The notes below the pieces were generated by a model that saw nothing but the letters and a program-made list of their open reading frames with translations, was not told where the DNA came from and ran no database searches. 64,000 nucleotides of DNA from Bacillota bacterium (GTDB lineage Bacteria > Bacillota > Clostridia > Lachnospirales > Bianqueaceae), in contig JAFRZE010000023.1 in the NCBI GenBank assembly GCA_017442735.1, forward strand, positions 1-64,000. Direction: 5' to 3'. The position numbers and the translations under genes are program-made. Shown one piece after another: positions 40,133-48,255 of this stretch (its first letter is position 1; each line of letters begins with the position of its first letter).

Positions 40133-40266
40133 TTTGTTCAATCCTTTCACTTTCCATCGGCCTGCCCGAGGCAAAGCCGTTCTAGCCTTTCCATTCTACC
40201 ATAATCCGTCCATGATTTCAGCAGAAAGTTTTTTATGCCACCTTTATGCCTGATTGGCCAAAAGTC

Positions 40267-40294
40267 TTGAAAACCCGAAGAAATGCTGTATGAT
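40267..40294 (+). promoter_or_regulatory. Promoter of the 650-residue gene, TTGAAA-16-TATGAT
   Basis: TTGAAA at 40267-40272 and TATGAT at 40289-40294 with 16 bp spacing, 40 bp before the ATG at 40335. Confidence 0.55.
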
Positions 40295-40334
40295 ATACAT
40301 ATCAGAATTAAATTTCCCGAAAGGATCATATATC

Positions 40335-42287
40335 ATGCCAAGATTAGAACAGATCGTAGCCCATATCGCCAATCAGTCCGGCGCCCAGGATCAGGGCCAG
40401 GACGTACAGAAGATCAACGCATATTTAAACACCCTTACCGCCCGCTACCAGGACCTTTCAGCCAGAGAAGACGACGAAGATTTCTCTCCCAATGAGGAAG
40501 CCGAGCTGAAACTGGTCGAGTATCTCCAGAATAAAACACAGGAATTCTTAGAGAAAGAACGCGAGCTCAAAGAAGCTCTCGACGCTCAGCCCAGAAATCA
40601 GGAAGCGATCCGCAGCGCCATGCGCGGCGCCATGCAGGCTTCTAACGAACTGGACAATATGTATACCCAGCTGAAGGACGTATATCCCAATTCTCCCGCC
40701 GTCACCGGTTCCGCCGAGTTTGATGCCTTATGGCAGACCGAGACCTTTGAAGATGCCGCCGAGACCCTGACGGATATCGGCAATTACCGCCGCAGCCGTG
40801 TAGCGCAGGATATTGAAGAAGGTGCTCCGGAAGATCTGTTTCGCGGACGTCAGAGAGAATACCGCCGCGGCGAACGTCATCAGTACTTTTCCGCGCTCAA
40901 TGATCCGTCCGATTATATCGACGAAAATGCCGAGCCGGAAGAATGTTCCATTATTTCCATGGAAGACCTGCAGGGCAAAAAGCGGACCGCCTACGGTGCA
41001 CTGGATGTACCGACCTCTGTCACCCTGCTTTCCTCACAGCTTCAGGTGGCCGGCCGTCTTATGAAGACCAAAGTCAGCAGAGATCCGGATCTCTCGGATG
41101 AGGATAATGAAATCTATCAGAAGGTAGGAGATAAACTGAACGAATACAGCGCCGCCCTCAATAATCTCGTTCACGTAGATCCGAAAGAAGAGCCGGAGCG
41201 TTATGCGCAGAATCTGAAGAAGGTCTCCACGCTGCCCGCTTTTCTCGGTCAGAGAAATCTGCAGAATCACCAGACCAACTACAAACTGATCGCGAATGTC
41301 CTCGATGAGCCCATCAGCAACTCCAGCAGCCGGCTCCTGGACAACGCGCTCGACGGGACCTCGAACTTCTTACAGATGGATCTGAACGTCCGCCATCTGA
41401 ATCCCGACTTTGATCCCATCAGAACTCCCGGCAAAGAGCCGGAAGCCGGATCAGCCGATGATCCGATCCTTTCCACCAAAGATGGTGATTATTTCTTTTC
41501 CGAGAACCCGAAGGAAGATCTCGCCAAGGGTCTTGCCGAGACGACTTTCCGTGTGCAGAACCCCAACGCGAATCCTTCCGAAGCGCAGCTGAAAAAGCGC
41601 GCGGCTCAGATCAAGGAAATGCCGATGTTCGTTCAGCTCTCCAAGAATCCGGCCCGGATGGAAAAGATCCTCCGCTCTAAAGACTTCACCCGCACCATGC
41701 AGTCCTTTGTTTCTCCGTTCAGCACCTGCACCACTGCCAGGAAAAAAGAAACGCTCGAGAAGCTGAAGATGCTGAAAGAGGCCGGCACGTTCGACTCCAA
41801 GCAGAATCGCTCCTCCAAATGGTGCAACCTGATGGACAGCCTGGACGCCATCGACACCAGCGATCCTGAAACCTATGACCGTCAGCTGCAGTCGATCTTC
41901 GACAAAACCGAGATCTATCAGAAAGGAAAGAAAGCCCTCGGCCGCGATGAAGGCGTCAACCGCCGGTTCGGTCAGAGTGTCAACATTCTCGGCGTCCTCG
42001 CGCAGGCCGGCGATGCCCCCAAGGATCGCTGCAACGTTCTCGTAGACCGGACCAACTACGTCCGTACCCGCTGGGGAAGAACGCAGCCCACGATCTCTCT
42101 TGCCGCGAGCACACTGCCTATGGTAGACAAGATCAACAAGGATTACAACGAGATCAAAGTCGCTGAGAAAGACCTCTACAAGCGTCATCAGCTGAAGAAT
42201 AACCAGCTCTTCCCCGACTACGGTCTGCTCCAGGCTCTGCCCGACGAAACCATCAAAAAGCAGCCCGAAAGAAATCTGAACATCTGA
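40335..42287 (+). CDS. Large soluble protein of unknown function, 650 residues
   Basis: A 650-residue protein with no signal peptide, transmembrane helix or recognised domain. It is rich in charged helices; residues 1-110 look like a coiled-coil (MPRLEQIVAHIANQ onwards, with KTQEFLEKERELKEAL). The middle has many Asp/Glu/Pro linkers; the C-terminal third is basic with two possible zinc-like Cys (FSTCTTARKK and SSKWCNLMD). It has its own promoter, an AAAGG site before ATG 40335, and a strong terminator, so it is a single-gene unit. Function unknown. Confidence 0.7.
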   Translation: MPRLEQIVAHIANQSGAQDQGQDVQKINAYLNTLTARYQDLSAREDDEDFSPNEEAELKLVEYLQNKTQEFLEKERELKEALDAQPRNQEAIRSAMRGAMQASNELDNMYTQLKDVYPNSPAVTGSAEFDALWQTETFEDAAETLTDIGNYRRSRVAQDIEEGAPEDLFRGRQREYRRGERHQYFSALNDPSDYIDENAEPEECSIISMEDLQGKKRTAYGALDVPTSVTLLSSQLQVAGRLMKTKVSRDPDLSDEDNEIYQKVGDKLNEYSAALNNLVHVDPKEEPERYAQNLKKVSTLPAFLGQRNLQNHQTNYKLIANVLDEPISNSSSRLLDNALDGTSNFLQMDLNVRHLNPDFDPIRTPGKEPEAGSADDPILSTKDGDYFFSENPKEDLAKGLAETTFRVQNPNANPSEAQLKKRAAQIKEMPMFVQLSKNPARMEKILRSKDFTRTMQSFVSPFSTCTTARKKETLEKLKMLKEAGTFDSKQNRSSKWCNLMDSLDAIDTSDPETYDRQLQSIFDKTEIYQKGKKALGRDEGVNRRFGQSVNILGVLAQAGDAPKDRCNVLVDRTNYVRTRWGRTQPTISLAASTLPMVDKINKDYNEIKVAEKDLYKRHQLKNNQLFPDYGLLQALPDETIKKQPERNLNI

Positions 42288-42310
42288 TCTTCCTGTCCCG
42301 TATAACAGAC

Positions 42311-42351
42311 GAGGGACTGTAGCAAAAAAGATTTGCTACGTCCCTCTTTTT
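42311..42351 (+). terminator. Intrinsic terminator after the 650-residue gene
   Basis: GAGGGAC-T-GTAGCAAA and TTTGCTACGTCCCTC pair with one bulged base, followed by TTTTT. The 5' arm is also the terminal repeat of the element that follows, and the same hairpin type follows the GH32 gene at the window start. Confidence 0.8.
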
Positions 42352-42774
42352 CCTTCTCCAGGTTGCAATTCACTGTGATGAAACGATTCTGTAAGCCTTT
42401 TGGGGCGTTTAGCTTTTATTCTTCTTCCGTCGTCCAAAATTGCCTGTGTTTTTTGGATAAGATATCGCCCTGACGAGCTATCTTATCTAAGAATTGGAAA
42501 AGCTAGTCTTTAAAAATCACTTCTTCGCCCAAACGAGTCGTCAGATCATTGAAATCTCTGGGCCAGATGCCAGTCAAGAGGCTCTTCTCGCCCAGGATTT
42601 AGAAAGGATAACTCCTCAAGTTGATCAGCCGCCCAATAATGCAAAAATGTACTGGGCGGCGAATCCTGAAAATGCACTAAACGCACCAAAGGCTTGGGGC
42701 AGATAAGGAAAAACATGAGAATATGCCCAATCTTTTCCCAAGTGAAATCGGAGAAGCTTTTTGCTACAGTCCCT
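42312..42774. repeat. Degenerate insertion-like element with 17-bp inverted ends
   Basis: A 463-bp AT-richer segment bounded by AGGGACTGTAGCAAAAA (42312-42328) and its exact reverse complement (42758-42774). No intact transposase is present. On the minus strand a fragment (YLIQKTQAIL, then KAKRPK) matches the reading at bases 1-107 of the window. A plus-strand frame of 70 codons at 42494-42706 has no ribosome binding site and is probably not a gene. The right end supplies the last codons of the DNPH1-like gene. Probably a decayed insertion sequence or MITE; no target duplication is obvious. Confidence 0.6.
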
Positions 42775-43186
42775 TTTTCAGGATCGTGTCCAGCAGAGGA
42801 TAGATCTCCTCTTCTGTTTCGTACGGATAGACTTTAAAATACGGATCGCCGGTCAGCATGGCGGAAAGCTGAGTCTTGGTCCGGTCATAGAAAAGATAGC
42901 AGGGAACGCCGATCTTCTCCGCGTAGGCCAGCTCATAACCGACGCCCAGCGACGGGCAGGTGCATTCGCCGATCAGCAGGTCGCTTTCCCGAAGCCAGCC
43001 CGTATCCTGCTGGTAGATCTCGACATCCTTGTTCCTGCCCTGTTCCAGAAGGTTCAGTTCCGGATGTCCGACATGTTCGGTCAGTACGATATCCGTCCGC
43101 TGGATATATTCGATCATTCGCTGATACAGTCCGGCGTCCACTCTTCCGCCCCGGATGGATCCGGCGAAATATACTTTCTGATTCAT
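42764..43186 (-). CDS. DNPH1/RCL-like 2'-deoxynucleoside 5'-monophosphate N-glycosidase
   Basis: A 140-residue protein of the nucleoside 2-deoxyribosyltransferase superfamily. KVYFAGSIRGGRVD, VLTEHVG, WLRESDLLIGECTCPSLGVGYELAYA and LSAML match the DNPH1 (RCL) pattern, with the catalytic Glu of GYE at residue 85. DNPH1 cleaves the glycosidic bond of (modified) deoxynucleotides. AAGGAG precedes the ATG at 43186, 11 bp after the TIR gene stop, so they form an operon. The final GL-stop is written by the inverted end of the adjoining element, so the native C-terminus has been changed. Confidence 0.82.
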   Translation of the reverse strand: MNQKVYFAGSIRGGRVDAGLYQRMIEYIQRTDIVLTEHVGHPELNLLEQGRNKDVEIYQQDTGWLRESDLLIGECTCPSLGVGYELAYAEKIGVPCYLFYDRTKTQLSAMLTGDPYFKVYPYETEEEIYPLLDTILKKGL

Positions 43187-43197
43187 GTCTTCTCCTT

Positions 43198-46100
43198 TCA
43201 TTCTTCCACAAAGGACCTGGCCCACTCGGTCAGGTCTTTTATTGTGTGGATCCGACAGGTACCGATCAGAGGTCCGGTTACGATGACTGCCTTTTCATGC
43301 TTGACTGACCACCAGCAGATGTCCTCTGTCCGGAGCGTGACCTCCCAGGAGGCTGTATCCAGCATTGTCGTCCAGTATTTGGCTCTGTAATCGTCCAGAT
43401 CTGTTTTTCCGCTTTCATTGGCGGCAAACAGGACCAGCCTCTCATTTTCCGGTTCTTCCACCGCGTAGAAGCGATCGATCAGATCCCCGGAGGAATCACT
43501 GAAACAATGTGTCAGAGAAAAGACCAGTTCTTTGGTCTCCACATCAAAGCAGTCCACCCGTCCGTTCACGGTCAGGATCAGCAGATACCTGTCGGAATCA
43601 GAGAAGCAGATCTCCCGGATCTCTCCCTTGGCATAATGGATCTTTTCGGTAAGAGAATCCGCTTTCTGTTTCTTCAGATCATACAGCGATACTGCCCCTA
43701 CATCGTAAACGACAGCCAGATACGGTTCCTGATTGGACAGGACCATATGGGTCACTGTGAACTCATCTACGTCCTCCGTGATCATCAGTTTATATCCTGT
43801 TTTCACGTTTTTCGCCACGAGCATCATTTTATCCGATACCACTGTCTGATAGAAAGCCGGTGTATACTCGGTAGCCGCGATCGTCTCCTCCAGCATCAAG
43901 GGATAGCCCCATCCGGCGATCCACCCGTTTTTCCCGACGGCAAAATGATCCAGAAAACTGTCGAACGCGTCATACTGCATGGCAATACCATCCTGGATCG
44001 ACGCGCATTCTTCCACTTTCCTGCCGTCCAGATAACAGTCGGCAGCTGCCCATACAGTCTTCGCCCCCAGTGCGCCGAATGACGGTACCGACGCTCCGGT
44101 CGGTTCGGTATAGCAAATATACAGTAGCTGCCCGTTTTCCAGCACCGCCGCCAGGTACTTCTCATCATCATCCGGCGTCTCGTCTATTTCTTCCACTGTC
44201 CCGTCCAGTCCGTAGATCCTTCCATAGAGCAGGAAATGACTTTCATCAGTCGGAAGCGGCCTGAAGTCCTGCTTGTGCAGGGGAAACGTATACGGAGCAA
44301 GACTGACCGTCGCGTCTTCCATGACTATCCCGGTCTCTATTTCAACGGTTCTCACATGCGCCAGATTTTCATCCTGACCGTCCGGAAAGAAACACATGAT
44401 CCTGTCCCCGGATGGGGTCGGCTCCGCAAAAGCGCAGTCGGTGTCGGATGACATGAAACTTTTTTCGTAATCCTTATCGCAAGCCAAAAACATAGCCAGC
44501 ATGAATCCGGGCTGTATCCTTGACGCGGCAAGAACATAATCACTGTAAAGATCCTTTGACTGATTAAAACAGCGATATACCGCAGAGAGATTCTCAACCG
44601 GCAGGTCCATGAAGAGCGCGCTTACAGATTTATCGTCTGTGTGATAAGGGATCTGATAAAAGATCAGCTTCCCGTCTTCCGTGATCAGTTCCAGCTCCCC
44701 GGCTTCTTTGTCTGACCATATCGCGGAAACGACCGGGCTTTCCAGTGTCCAGAAATTGTAAAGGCTCCCGTCTTTTTTATCGATCAGATAGACGCTGTTA
44801 CCCAGAATTACTACATACTGACTCTCACCGGAAACCAATGGTATGTAAGTTCTTTCCTTATATTTGTAATCACTTTTCATACCGGTGGATGAAGAGAGAG
44901 AACTGTACCAGCTGTTCTGGATCATTTCCTGAGCCGGATCCGGATAACAGATAAGCGAATACAGAAGTTTCCTGCAGATCATGGAAAAGTATACGGAGCT
45001 GTTGTCCGACGCGATCTCCATTCCCGGGATCATCTCCGGTGAAACGACCAGGTATTGGATCATGTTCAGCTGATATCCGTTTTCCCAGGTCCCCTGGAAG
45101 AGCAGCACACCCTGCCCGTCTTCCTGCAGTGTGGGAAGCGCGAAAGCCAGGATCGAATTGTCATCGGAAAAATCAGCGCTGTAATCAAAGATATGATCCT
45201 CCGCACTGATACAGATATGATATGGATCGTCCGGAAGGAGATAGCGGCAGACTGTTTCGCCGGTTTTGGTATCCAGAACTTCGATATACATATCCGCAGA
45301 TGATCCAGGCCGCATGCTCGCTTTATCCTTTTCCCCCGGTCTCAGTTCATTGGTGACGTCTTCCAGGCTCATGTTCCAGTCCAGTACCGCGAATAACGAC
45401 TGATCATCGGAGATGACCTGAAACTGATTGGGCAGACTGTATTCATACGTCCAGACGACAGACCCGTCGGTCATGGATAAAGCTGTCAGCTTTTCCGGAT
45501 ATTTGCAAAGTAGATATCCGTTTCCTACCGCGTACAACCGGGGCGTGCCTGTCGTATTCAGAGGGACGTTCCATATCGCCTCTGCGCTCGTCATATCCAG
45601 GGCCGCAATGTTTCCCACCTGGTCGGCGGTAAACGCGATCCTCCCGTCGGCCGAAGCGCACAGGCTCTCGATATCCGTCGGCTGCGAACCCATTGGTACA
45701 CATCGGTATTTCCCAGGACTATAAGCTCCTAACGCGTCATTCAGGAGTTTTTCCACCCGGTGATCGTAAATGTCCGGATCTTTTCCTTCCACCGCAGCCA
45801 ACGCGTCTCCCAGCGCACCGAACAAGTCATAGTTTTCCAGTTTGGAAATTCCGGCGTCCACCAACGCGGTGGAAAGATTCTTTTCCAGTTCCAGGTTCTT
45901 TTGAGAAATCTGCGCGTTTTTCACCAATACCACGCCGACAATGACGGCCATAACGGCAAGACCAGCCGCTGCCGCCATCAAAAGCCTTGTCGTCCTGGCT
46001 CGATGTTCGCGCTGCCACAGTGCGTCGAACGGACAGCCCAGGATAGCGGCGCAGAGCCGCAGACTCTCCTTCTTGAAGCTCTTCCTGTTGATCGTGTGGT

Positions 46101-46560
46101 CCGGGCTGGAGATATTCGCGGCCAGCGGCTCGACGTTCGCCAGGATATTGCCGTTTCTGTCCCGGATAAAACGCAGCATATCCGGAAAGGACTGTTCCGG
46201 ACTTCCATCCGCCAGCACGGCCAGTATATGATTCCGGTCGTGGGTCTGCAGGAAATACTGGATCTCCGCCATACACCACTGAGATAGCTGCAGCTGCGGT
46301 GTACAAATCACGATCAGATACTGTGAATGATCCAGCGCGTACTTGATGCTTCCCGACAGGCTCGCGGAAGCGGGAAGTTCGTCTTCGTCGCGGAAGCAAA
46401 GGCCGAGTTTCTTCCCTCCGGTACGGCTTTGGTATTCCTTCGGTACGACAAAGTTCTCGATCCTCTTCTGTATTTTGATGGCTGCTTCCCGATCCAGCGG
46501 CAGATGCCGATAGCTGATAAAAGCAGCGTACGAGCGCTCATCCGTTTTAGGTGTATTCAT
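43198..46560 (-). CDS. TIR-domain membrane protein with beta-propeller
   Basis: A 1120-residue protein. Residues 9-155 are a TIR domain (YAAFISYRH, then LCFRDEDELP, then SQWCMAEI), with the catalytic-type Glu of WCxxE at residue 99, so NAD hydrolysis is possible. A transmembrane helix is at about 193-213. A short helical region precedes ~850 residues of PQQ/WD-like beta-propeller repeats (for example GRIAFTADQVGNIAAL, YAVGNGYLL). The TIR should be cytoplasmic and the propeller on the other side, as a sensor. It overlaps the isomerase gene by 14 bases and is followed by the DNPH1-like gene. Confidence 0.85.
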   Translation of the reverse strand: MNTPKTDERSYAAFISYRHLPLDREAAIKIQKRIENFVVPKEYQSRTGGKKLGLCFRDEDELPASASLSGSIKYALDHSQYLIVICTPQLQLSQWCMAEIQYFLQTHDRNHILAVLADGSPEQSFPDMLRFIRDRNGNILANVEPLAANISSPDHTINRKSFKKESLRLCAAILGCPFDALWQREHRARTTRLLMAAAAGLAVMAVIVGVVLVKNAQISQKNLELEKNLSTALVDAGISKLENYDLFGALGDALAAVEGKDPDIYDHRVEKLLNDALGAYSPGKYRCVPMGSQPTDIESLCASADGRIAFTADQVGNIAALDMTSAEAIWNVPLNTTGTPRLYAVGNGYLLCKYPEKLTALSMTDGSVVWTYEYSLPNQFQVISDDQSLFAVLDWNMSLEDVTNELRPGEKDKASMRPGSSADMYIEVLDTKTGETVCRYLLPDDPYHICISAEDHIFDYSADFSDDNSILAFALPTLQEDGQGVLLFQGTWENGYQLNMIQYLVVSPEMIPGMEIASDNSSVYFSMICRKLLYSLICYPDPAQEMIQNSWYSSLSSSTGMKSDYKYKERTYIPLVSGESQYVVILGNSVYLIDKKDGSLYNFWTLESPVVSAIWSDKEAGELELITEDGKLIFYQIPYHTDDKSVSALFMDLPVENLSAVYRCFNQSKDLYSDYVLAASRIQPGFMLAMFLACDKDYEKSFMSSDTDCAFAEPTPSGDRIMCFFPDGQDENLAHVRTVEIETGIVMEDATVSLAPYTFPLHKQDFRPLPTDESHFLLYGRIYGLDGTVEEIDETPDDDEKYLAAVLENGQLLYICYTEPTGASVPSFGALGAKTVWAAADCYLDGRKVEECASIQDGIAMQYDAFDSFLDHFAVGKNGWIAGWGYPLMLEETIAATEYTPAFYQTVVSDKMMLVAKNVKTGYKLMITEDVDEFTVTHMVLSNQEPYLAVVYDVGAVSLYDLKKQKADSLTEKIHYAKGEIREICFSDSDRYLLILTVNGRVDCFDVETKELVFSLTHCFSDSSGDLIDRFYAVEEPENERLVLFAANESGKTDLDDYRAKYWTTMLDTASWEVTLRTEDICWWSVKHEKAVIVTGPLIGTCRIHTIKDLTEWARSFVEE

Positions 46561-47398
46561 AGCAGCTCCCTGTACAGTTTTCTTTCAGCCACTTTACGGA
46601 CTTTCTCAAAGCTTCGATCGTCTTTGTTTCGAGCACACAACGGGCATTTCTCTTTTCCGCCAGTTTCAGTCTGTCCGCGAGATCGATCTCTCCGTCTCCC
46701 AGCGCCAGATGATTCTTTGGCGGGTTTTCTTTGCCGTCATGCATATGAAAATGGATCAGCCGGTCCTGATGTTCCAGGATGAACGGGACGTCTTTCTCTC
46801 TTACCGCTTTAGAGTGACCGATATCCCAGGTCAGCCCGAATACCGGACTTTCCAGCAGATACTTGATGGCCTTTTTCTCAAATCCGTGAAATCCATCGGT
46901 ATTCTCCACCGTGATCCGTATCTCGCTGTCCCCGATCCAGTCCTCACAGAAAGAGCGAAAGACGGCAAAAGAGTTCATATAGGTATCAAAATCACGGTCA
47001 TACATCTGAACTTTCCGGTCCGGCAAAGTGATATAGATCCCGTGATGCATGTGCATGTTGATCGTCAGCGGCTGTGTTTTGTCTCCGTATCGATCCCGCA
47101 GACATATCAGCTTTTTTGACACATCGATCGTCCGCCTGACCGTTTCCAGATAGGCTTTCGAGACAAGCGGATTGAAGTCCGCGATATTCAGATTCTCATC
47201 CAGATGGATGGTATAATAGATCCCGGTCTTTTCTGCCAGATGCAAAAATCTGTCCGTTTCCTCCAGCTGATCGATCTGATATTCCGGAAAATTCATATTC
47301 AATTCAATGAACCGAAGTCCCAGTTCCCCGCAAAGCGCCGCGTTTTCCTCCAGCGTCCGGTTTTCGATCAGTGTGGGCATACCAAATTGTATCATCTC
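46547..47398 (-). CDS. Sugar phosphate isomerase/epimerase-type TIM-barrel protein
   Basis: A 283-residue xylose-isomerase-like TIM barrel (AP_endonuc_2 superfamily). Metal-binding positions are suggested by ITVENTDG, TWDIGHSK and IHFHMHDGKE, then CVLETK. Such enzymes isomerise or epimerise sugars, or act as endonuclease IV relatives. AGGAG fits the ATG at 47398; a longer in-frame upstream reading is not protein-like and runs into a terminator and the YciI gene. Its stop overlaps the TIR gene start by 14 bases, so the two are coupled. Confidence 0.82.
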   Translation of the reverse strand, partial: EMIQFGMPTLIENRTLEENAALCGELGLRFIELNMNFPEYQIDQLEETDRFLHLAEKTGIYYTIHLDENLNIADFNPLVSKAYLETVRRTIDVSKKLICLRDRYGDKTQPLTINMHMHHGIYITLPDRKVQMYDRDFDTYMNSFAVFRSFCEDWIGDSEIRITVENTDGFHGFEKKAIKYLLESPVFGLTWDIGHSKAVREKDVPFILEHQDRLIHFHMHDGKENPPKNHLALGDGEIDLADRLKLAEKRNARCVLETKTIEALRKSVKWLKENCTGSCYEYT

Positions 47399-47522: not shown

Positions 47523-47819
47523 TCAGACGCTCTTGTTATCCACAACGACCGCGTTGTACGGCTCGATGCGCACTTCCTGCCAGACATGTTCGGTATAATA
47601 AGGCTCATTGGCCAGATACTCATCCAGTTCCGCCTTGTTCTCCACCTTCAGAACGAGGACCGATCCTTTCAGTTTTCCTTCCTCATCCAGCATGCCGCCG
47701 GCAATGATCACCTGGCCTTTCTCTTTCATGCGCGCGATGTTCGCCAGATGTCCCGGACGGACGCTCATCCTTTTCTCGAGCATATTCGGGCCGTCAAATC
47801 CCATGATCACAAACTGCAT
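47523..47819 (-). CDS. YciI-family protein
   Basis: A 98-residue YciI-like ferredoxin-fold protein. MQFVIMGFDGP at the start, RPGHLANIARMKEKGQVIIAGGML in the centre with the conserved His, and FDxY-like LANEPYYTEHVW near the end match the family. YciI proteins are small dehydratase or hydrolase-like enzymes of unclear role. It lies 26 bp after the HxlR regulator and ends at a strong terminator, so the two form a short operon. Confidence 0.85.
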   Translation of the reverse strand: MQFVIMGFDGPNMLEKRMSVRPGHLANIARMKEKGQVIIAGGMLDEEGKLKGSVLVLKVENKAELDEYLANEPYYTEHVWQEVRIEPYNAVVVDNKSV

Positions 47820-47845: not shown

Positions 47846-48226
47846 TTACTCTTTTTCACAATTGCGGCTTTCTTCCCGGATCTGCTCCGCGCCCCAGTCC
47901 CGAAGCGCCAGAAGCGCGGGAAGAAGGGTCTTTCCCTTACAGCTCAGGGTATATTCCACTCTCGGCGGAATACAGTCATACTGAATCCGCTCGATCATTT
48001 TATGCTCTTCCAGCTCGTCCAGTGTCTTGGAAAGCATGGCATCCGTCAGCTTCAGCGCTTTTCGGATCTCGGAAAACCGCATAGGCTTTTCGCTTTTCGC
48101 CAGTTGCCAGAGGATCGGGATCTTCCATTTCTGTCCGATCACCGATACCGCGTACATGATCGGGCAGATGTTGCCTCCTTCCCGGATCCTGGCTAAAATC
48201 TCCTGATACTTTTCTTCCCAAGTCAT
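47846..48226 (-). CDS. HxlR-family transcriptional regulator
   Basis: A 126-residue winged-helix regulator. CPIMYAVSVIGQKWKIPILWQLA, then MRFSEIRKAL, then LSKTLDELEEHKMIERIQY and PPRVEYTLSCKG form the HxlR/MarR-like fold. The conserved early Cys may sense electrophiles or redox state. The ATG at 48226 is preferred over a GTG 18 bases upstream that lacks a site; both are possible. It is divergent from an amino-acid ABC importer across a 127-bp intergenic region with direct repeats. Confidence 0.88.
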   Translation of the reverse strand: MTWEEKYQEILARIREGGNICPIMYAVSVIGQKWKIPILWQLAKSEKPMRFSEIRKALKLTDAMLSKTLDELEEHKMIERIQYDCIPPRVEYTLSCKGKTLLPALLALRDWGAEQIREESRNCEKE

Positions 48227-48255
48227 TTGAAAAATAAACCTCACTATGAAAAAAG

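What the first reader, a model, noticed from the sequence alone, without database searches (positions are those of the whole stretch)
42764..47398. TIR-propeller plus DNPH1-like hydrolase operon
An isomerase-fold gene overlaps a gene for TIR (WCxxE catalytic Glu at 99)-transmembrane-propeller, followed 11 bp later by a DNPH1/RCL-type nucleotide N-glycosidase. Both TIR and DNPH1 enzymes break N-glycosidic bonds of nucleotides. A membrane propeller as sensor, a TIR NADase as effector and a deoxynucleotide hydrolase as partner would suit a stress or phage response. The function of TIR-propeller proteins in gut Bacillota is, to my knowledge, undescribed.
Basis: partly seen in the sequence, partly recalled or inferred. 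Interest (0 to 1): 0.62.

Follow-up and report, generated by a model that had tools for sequence, protein, structure and literature searches.

The report
Membrane TIR receptor beside DNPH1-type enzyme
A gut bacterium carries a likely inside-out relative of Toll-like receptors, with an enzyme of the immune TIR kind inside the cell and a large propeller-shaped sensor apparently outside; such receptors occur in several bacterial groups, but the neighbouring nucleotide-cleaving enzyme is a local companion and not a fixed partner.

Summary
The three genes are as described. 43198-46560(-) encodes a 1120-aa protein: TIR domain, one transmembrane helix, then a PQQ/WD40-type propeller region. Glu99 is invariant in 41 of 41 relatives. 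Family-wide charge bias at the helix and an acidic C-terminal part predict TIR inside, propeller outside. Against the sister species dN/dS is 0.03 for TIR, 0.18 for the rest. The downstream gene is a true DNPH1-type enzyme (all five human catalytic residues kept). The pairing is local: 2 of 39 TIR loci, both in one genus; three other DNPH1-like genes have no TIR neighbour. The overlapping isomerase-fold gene is not next to TIR in the sister species. The same TIR-TM module carries propeller, TPR or RHS-repeat regions and is linked elsewhere to a DHH phosphoesterase (9 of 39 loci) and RyR-domain proteins (3 loci). I read it as a receptor whose cytosolic TIR makes an NAD-derived signal. Activity, ligand and any phage role are untested, and the linked partners exist in relatives only: the window's genome has neither the long DHH gene nor RyR. 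New variant of a known kind.

The parts
43198..46560 (-). TIR-transmembrane-propeller protein, 1120 aa
45991..46560 (-). TIR domain and post-TIR helical segment (residues 1-190), predicted cytosolic; Glu99 codon at 46264-46266
   Evidence: TIR_2; profile matches to Roq1, AbTir and Cat1 TIR structures; F14, Y17, D58, E99 in 41 of 41
45922..45978 (-). single transmembrane helix (residues 195-213)
   Evidence: hydropathy; K/R summed over 21 members 117 before, 58 after (in this protein only 4 vs 3)
43201..45915 (-). propeller-type region (residues 216-1120), predicted extracytoplasmic
   Evidence: PQQ_2 and WD40-type matches; acidic, faster evolving
42764..43186 (-). DNPH1/RCL-type 2'-deoxynucleoside 5'-monophosphate N-hydrolase, 140 aa, 11 bp after TIR, AAGGAG before its ATG
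   Evidence: Y6, E37, H38, D61, E85 match human Y24, E55, H56, D80, E104
46547..47395 (-). AP_endonuc_2 TIM-barrel gene overlapping the TIR start; juxtaposition not conserved
   Evidence: (CbiR model 46 bits, cut-off 105)
42300..42755 (-). copy of a dispersed repeat just downstream of the DNPH1-like gene (neighbour, not part of the system)

Best explanation
The large protein is most likely a single-pass membrane receptor of the opposite polarity to Toll-like receptors: N-terminal TIR in the cytosol, C-terminal propeller outside. A ligand or envelope change sensed by the propeller would cluster the TIR domains, which then cleave NAD+ and make ADP-ribose or a cyclic variant as a signal, or deplete NAD+. 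In related loci, linked channel-like proteins and a phosphoesterase would read out or remove the signal. Here the DNPH1-like enzyme is co-transcribed by position but probably works as a nucleotide-pool hydrolase (5-hydroxymethyl-dUMP type) and is not an obligatory partner. Shown: sequences, domain matches, conserved catalytic residues, one transmembrane segment, gene linkages. Inferred: polarity, NADase activity, signalling, ligand, cellular role, co-transcription.
For: E99 with F14, Y17, D58 invariant in 41 of 41 relatives, including a Sinorhizobium protein. Profile matches to plant and bacterial TIR structures, several of which are NADases by annotation or my recall. A hydrophobic helix after TIR in all 21 members of A1 (one below the 1.6 threshold) with K/R 117 before and 58 after; C-terminal part net charge -26 to -80. 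TIR far more conserved than the rest. The same TIR-TM module bears propeller, TPR (Sinorhizobium, L085) or RHS-repeat (L084) regions, as expected of a receptor whose sensor is exchanged. DHH/DHHA1 gene downstream in 9 of 39 loci from three GTDB families, both orientations; 9 of 12 long DHH genes of TIR-bearing genomes are linked against 0.07 expected. RyR matches in 6 of 22 TIR-bearing and 1 of 74 other genomes, 3 of 7 next to TIR against 0.04 expected. Some gut Clostridia TIR_2 domains are NADases in vitro (PMC9092222 section 8, read).
Against: No activity, topology or ligand data. In PMC9092222 only 28 of 152 bacterial TIRs tested were active, so conserved residues do not guarantee activity. 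In this protein itself the K/R bias at the helix is only 4 vs 3. No structure model: full length pLDDT 28, TIR alone 46. The window's genome has no RyR match and no long DHH gene, so the linked partners are seen only in relatives. The RyR-linked members are the most divergent of the TIR family and two carry TPR or RHS regions, not propellers. The SLOG reading of the L075 neighbour is by eye; Pfam and PDB do not confirm it. Fisher p-values ignore shared ancestry. WD40 propellers are commonly cytosolic (recalled), which would contradict the polarity.
Confidence: 0.5

Rival explanations
1. TIR and DNPH1-like enzyme form one functional unit, for example a defence or stress system in which TIR consumes NAD+ and the DNPH1-like enzyme removes deoxynucleotides or processes a TIR product.
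For: 11-bp gap and same strand; pairing kept in both genomes of the ortholog group although the part after the helix diverged to 78% identity; both families share a fold superfamily and glycosidic-bond chemistry (PMC7159879 and PMC11204291 passages).
Against: 2 of 39 TIR loci, both in one genus; DNPH1-like genes without TIR neighbour in G005, G233, G049; G005 has no TIR-propeller.
Confidence: 0.15
2. A scaffold TIR: the protein is an assembly platform without NADase activity, its propeller binding other proteins, possibly on the cytosolic side.
For: Many TIRs assayed in vitro were inactive (PMC9092222); many propellers are binding scaffolds (recalled).
Against: Glu99 and neighbours invariant in 41 of 41; acidic, fast-evolving C-terminal part and family-wide K/R bias favour an outside location.
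Confidence: 0.2
3. A housekeeping envelope-stress or cell-wall sensor unrelated to phage, with TIR acting as a metabolic brake.
For: Most neighbours look metabolic by eye, one clade sits 28 bp after a MurE-like ligase; only scattered defence-like neighbours, such as an AbiLi-type ATPase at L035 and TIR/RT-protease-type matches at L044 and L045.
Against: Patchy distribution (22 of 96 relatives), several paralogs per genome, fast-evolving region after the helix.
Confidence: 0.3

Closest known systems
Toll-like / IL-1 receptors of animals
   Same: single-pass receptor layout with a cytosolic TIR and an extracellular sensor
   Different: here TIR is N-terminal and the sensor C-terminal, a propeller and not LRR or Ig; polarity is predicted only; no adaptor signalling shown
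Thoeris (ThsB TIR with ThsA SLOG or TM-macro effector)
   Same: TIR with catalytic Glu; ThsB_TIR profile matches 13 of 21 members; one related locus has a SLOG-like two-TM neighbour (by eye)
   Different: ThsB is not fused to TM and propeller (recalled); no ThsA-like gene at the window locus
Gut bacterial TIR_2 NADases (PMC9092222)
   Same: Pfam TIR_2 domains, some from gut Clostridia, making ADPR or variant cADPR
   Different: the passages read do not say whether any of those proteins has this architecture
Human/rat DNPH1 (RCL)
   Same: E 1.7e-25 to 1.7e-22 to solved DNPH1 structures, five catalytic residues kept
   Different: substrate not tested; gene context unrelated
TIR-NBD-WD40 proteins of bacteria, and DUF4062-NACHT-WD40 proteins such as TEP1
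   Same: TIR or TIR-like domain with WD40 propellers
   Different: those have a central NTPase in place of a transmembrane helix (passages of PMC9153377, PMC13174449)

Membership tests
TIR domain (NADase type) | significant TIR profile match | tested here: met
   TIR_2 3.5e-7; 21 of 21 members; PDB profile hits to Roq1 5e-8, AbTir 3.8e-6, Cat1 9e-5
TIR domain (NADase type) | catalytic Glu in SxWCxxE-type motif | tested here: met
   E99, 41 of 41
TIR domain (NADase type) | NAD+ cleavage | not testable with these tools
   needs an assay
DNPH1/RCL | homology to solved DNPH1 and residues Y24, E55, H56, D80, E104 | tested here: met
   residue mapping is mine from the alignment
DNPH1/RCL | hydrolysis of 5-hydroxymethyl-dUMP | not testable with these tools
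   needs an assay
Toll-like receptor layout | TIR inside, sensor outside, single TM | tested here: inconclusive
   one TM and K/R bias over the family; orientation not measured
Thoeris | ThsA effector next to the TIR gene | tested here: not met
   no such gene seen at the window locus or its sister locus
Known anti-phage system in PADLOC | strong model match for the locus | tested here: not met
   only weak TIR-type matches, best E=0.0015, for the large protein and none for the other two
TIR-DNPH1 conserved operon | pairing in independent genomes | tested here: not met
   2 of 39 TIR loci, one genus
CbiR cobamide remodelling enzyme (isomerase-fold gene) | NCBIfam cut-off of 105 bits | tested here: not met
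   46.4 bits

The most novel reading that the evidence does not exclude
Bacteria have a family of Toll-like receptors of inverted polarity: a conserved cytosolic TIR-TM signalling module with exchangeable extracellular sensors (propeller in Bacillota, TPR in Sinorhizobium and one Bacillota genome, RHS-repeat in another), which turns outside signals into an NAD-derived messenger read by RyR-, SLOG- or RCK-type membrane proteins and removed by a DHH phosphoesterase; the DNPH1-type enzyme takes a similar place in this genus.
Probability: 0.3. Interest if true: 0.85.

Novelty: new variant of a known kind. Interest (0 to 1): 0.52.

Why it matters
Bacterial TIR proteins studied so far mostly respond to events inside the cell (recalled). 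A receptor that joins an extracytoplasmic sensor to a TIR enzyme would let a bacterium turn outside cues into NAD-based signals, would resemble Toll-like receptors in plan, and would tie gut and rumen Clostridia, where up to five such genes occur per genome in the set searched, to NAD metabolites already seen in the gut. The linkage to RyR-domain membrane proteins gives a concrete test of whether cyclic ADP-ribose-type messengers gate channels in bacteria.

Tried and rejected
Conserved three-gene operon: rejected. The isomerase-fold gene sits 4.3 kb away in the sister species, on the other side of the ABC operon.

The 677-aa convergent neighbour as partner, because a ~960-980-aa protein lies next to a paralog (L031, L036): BLASTP finds no significant similarity; set aside. 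Its matches lie in 3 of 10 genomes searched, all of the genus.

Structure prediction: full length with two sequences pLDDT 28, pTM 0.22; TIR alone from one sequence pLDDT 46. A Foldseek search with the latter returned mostly TIR domains but none at E<=0.001; weak support only.

TIR-propeller in viral contigs: none confirmed. DNPH1-like protein in phage records: none. A genome-contig scan with the single protein found only the sister species. A search of the order of G480 for more loci of the SLOG-like kind found none beyond G480 itself (1 of 10 genomes).

SLOG/SLATT naming of L075:4360-5991 is by eye; weak DUF4231 match (E=0.02, below cut-off) and no PDB match. Burroughs et al. 2015 could not be read (not held); its ideas on SLOG, RyR and SLATT are recalled, save what the PMC7159879 passages say about TIR, DRHyd and SLOG.

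Literature: the searches listed no paper that, from the listing or the passages read, describes a TIR-transmembrane-propeller protein in Bacillota. Two of them returned nothing. The library lacks most subscription papers, so this is no proof of absence. Papers seen: PMC7159879, PMC9153377, PMC7075850, PMC11204291, PMC13174449, PMC10603095 (passages); PMC9092222 (outline, section 8, passages); all others only as search listings.

Full report
What is there. On the minus strand lie, in order, an HxlR regulator (47846-48244), a YciI-type gene (47523-47819), an AP_endonuc_2 TIM-barrel gene (46547-47395), the TIR gene (43198-46560) and a PF05014 gene (42764-43186). The TIR ORF starts inside the end of the TIM-barrel gene (14 nt overlap) and the PF05014 ATG follows the TIR stop by 11 bp behind AAGGAG.

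The large protein. Residues 14-120 match TIR_2; 302-390 match PQQ_2 and about 910-1020 match WD40-type models. In an alignment of 21 relatives (window protein included) TIR_2 matches all 21, PQQ_2 19 and the Thoeris ThsB_TIR model 13. A TIR profile matches solved TIR structures, best Roq1 5e-8, also AbTir, Cat1 and TLR. In a wider set of 41 (39 loci plus a Butyrivibrio and a Sinorhizobium plasmid protein) F14, Y17, D58 and E99 are invariant. PMC11204291 (passage) says that NADase TIRs usually have Phe or Ala where DNPH1 has its active-site Tyr; that F14 is that position is my inference.

Topology. Hydropathy finds one main helix after TIR in all 21 members of A1 (one below threshold; three show a second weaker peak), residues 195-213 here. 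Lys/Arg in the 18 residues before it sum to 117 and after it to 58; in the window protein alone the difference is small (4 vs 3). The part after the helix is acidic in all 21. Against the sister species (G006, a water-buffalo rumen MAG) dN/dS is 0.03 for residues 1-190 and 0.18 for 216-1120. This fits a cytosolic enzyme with an exposed, faster-changing sensor, but is not proof. Structure prediction failed for lack of a permitted alignment.

Spread. With the TIR-TM profile 22 of 96 relatives have 36 matches, the window's genome 3 and G006 5. In 398 genomes across the phylum 6 match, two outside the class. Distant members carry other regions after the helix: TPR in Sinorhizobium and L085, RHS repeats in L084.

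The DNPH1-like enzyme. It matches rat and human DNPH1 structures at 1.7e-25 to 1.7e-22. Human catalytic residues Y24, E55, H56, D80, E104 (PMC10603095 passages) correspond to Y6, E37, H38, D61, E85, present in all five homologs found. Those come from 5 of 295 genomes of the order: own, G006, and G005, G233, G049, where no TIR gene lies in the stretches fetched. Of 39 TIR loci only the window and its G006 ortholog have it. So the pair is shared by two species of one genus and could be functional there, but it is no general system.

The isomerase-fold gene. In G006 HxlR is directly upstream of TIR; the AP_endonuc_2 gene is 4.3 kb away beyond the ABC operon, and YciI is not in between. The overlap in the window is a lineage-specific juxtaposition. 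In G004 and G002 the HxlR-SBP block is conserved without the TIR or DNPH1-like gene within the stretch fetched (the G002 contig ends early).

What is linked to TIR elsewhere. Within 6 kb of TIR genes one neighbour recurs that caught my eye: a DHH/DHHA1 protein of about 500 aa, downstream in all cases, in 9 of 39 loci from families f5, f6 and f24, in both orientations. The same clustering also listed ABC-transporter-type genes in 7 loci and some smaller groups, which I took for common genes. Long DHH genes occur in 10 of 14 TIR-bearing and 7 of 63 other genomes outside the window's family, and in 0 of 19 inside it. Nine of the 12 in TIR-bearing genomes are linked; 0.07 expected by chance. They lie on at least two branches of the TIR tree. 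The DHH model was built from linked genes, which favours finding such genes. RyR domains match in 7 of 96 genomes, 6 of them TIR-bearing, and 3 of the 7 are within 3.5 kb of a TIR gene; L085's is fused to an Ion_trans_2 domain. At L075 the TIR gene overlaps a protein that I read by eye as SLOG plus two TM helices; no library confirmed it. L047 has a Castor/Pollux-like match (E=0.00056, below cut-off) in the gene 58 bp upstream. Relatedness was not corrected for in the p-values.

Interpretation. The most economical reading is a family of TIR receptors with an outside sensor, signalling through NAD-derived nucleotides. The partners suggest that the messenger is read by channels or removed by phosphoesterases, but in relatives only: the window's genome has no RyR match and no long DHH gene. 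In-vitro data on other TIRs warn that only 28 of 152 tested were active (PMC9092222 section 8).

Novelty. TIR NADases, WD40-TIR fusions with NTPases, and DNPH1 are known. A TIR-TM-propeller receptor family was not described in the papers I found. I file it as a new variant of a known kind; the bolder inverted Toll-receptor reading is left open at 0.3.

Noticed in passing
window 42300-42755: Copy of a dispersed repeat with 41 matches (67-82% identity besides itself) in the genome, several at contig ends; rich in conserved hairpins, no clear ORF, no Rfam hit at gathering threshold; missing at the sister locus, where the gap is about 70 bp. RNAalifold gives 68 pairs, 6 with a two-sided change, but the covariation term is near zero.
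   Followed up: partly
window 40254-42287: 677-aa protein without a Pfam call above cut-off, convergent to the DNPH1-like gene; relatives in 3 of 10 genomes searched, all of the genus, with shorter paralogs.
   Followed up: partly
L043, L044, L045, L046, L077, L080, L082, L086, L087: DHH/DHHA1 protein of about 500 aa with an extra C-terminal part, recurrently downstream of TIR-propeller genes; function unknown.
   Followed up: partly
L075:4360-5991: Protein containing IIGVTGHRDI near its start, with two TM helices, overlapping a TIR-propeller gene; SLOG/SLATT-like by eye only.
   Followed up: partly
L084:9537-10934, L085:3149-4705: RyR-domain proteins next to TIR-TM genes, one with an ion-channel domain.
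   Followed up: partly
L044:11099-12952, L045:4938-12909, L087: Further TIR-like and trypsin-like protease genes flank the TIR-propeller gene in family f24.
   Followed up: partly
L086:6458-9559: TIR-TM ORF (396 aa) and propeller ORF (632 aa) lie 12 bp apart on one strand: a split gene, frameshift or assembly error.
   Followed up: no
L058:2095-3601: A 44% DNPH1-like homolog sits beside a thymidylate-synthase-like gene and ATP-grasp-like genes (by eye), perhaps a nucleoside biosynthesis cluster.
   Followed up: no
L033:15873-18145: In the sister species the AP_endonuc_2 gene neighbours a methyltransferase-like and a macrodomain-like gene (by eye).
   Followed up: no
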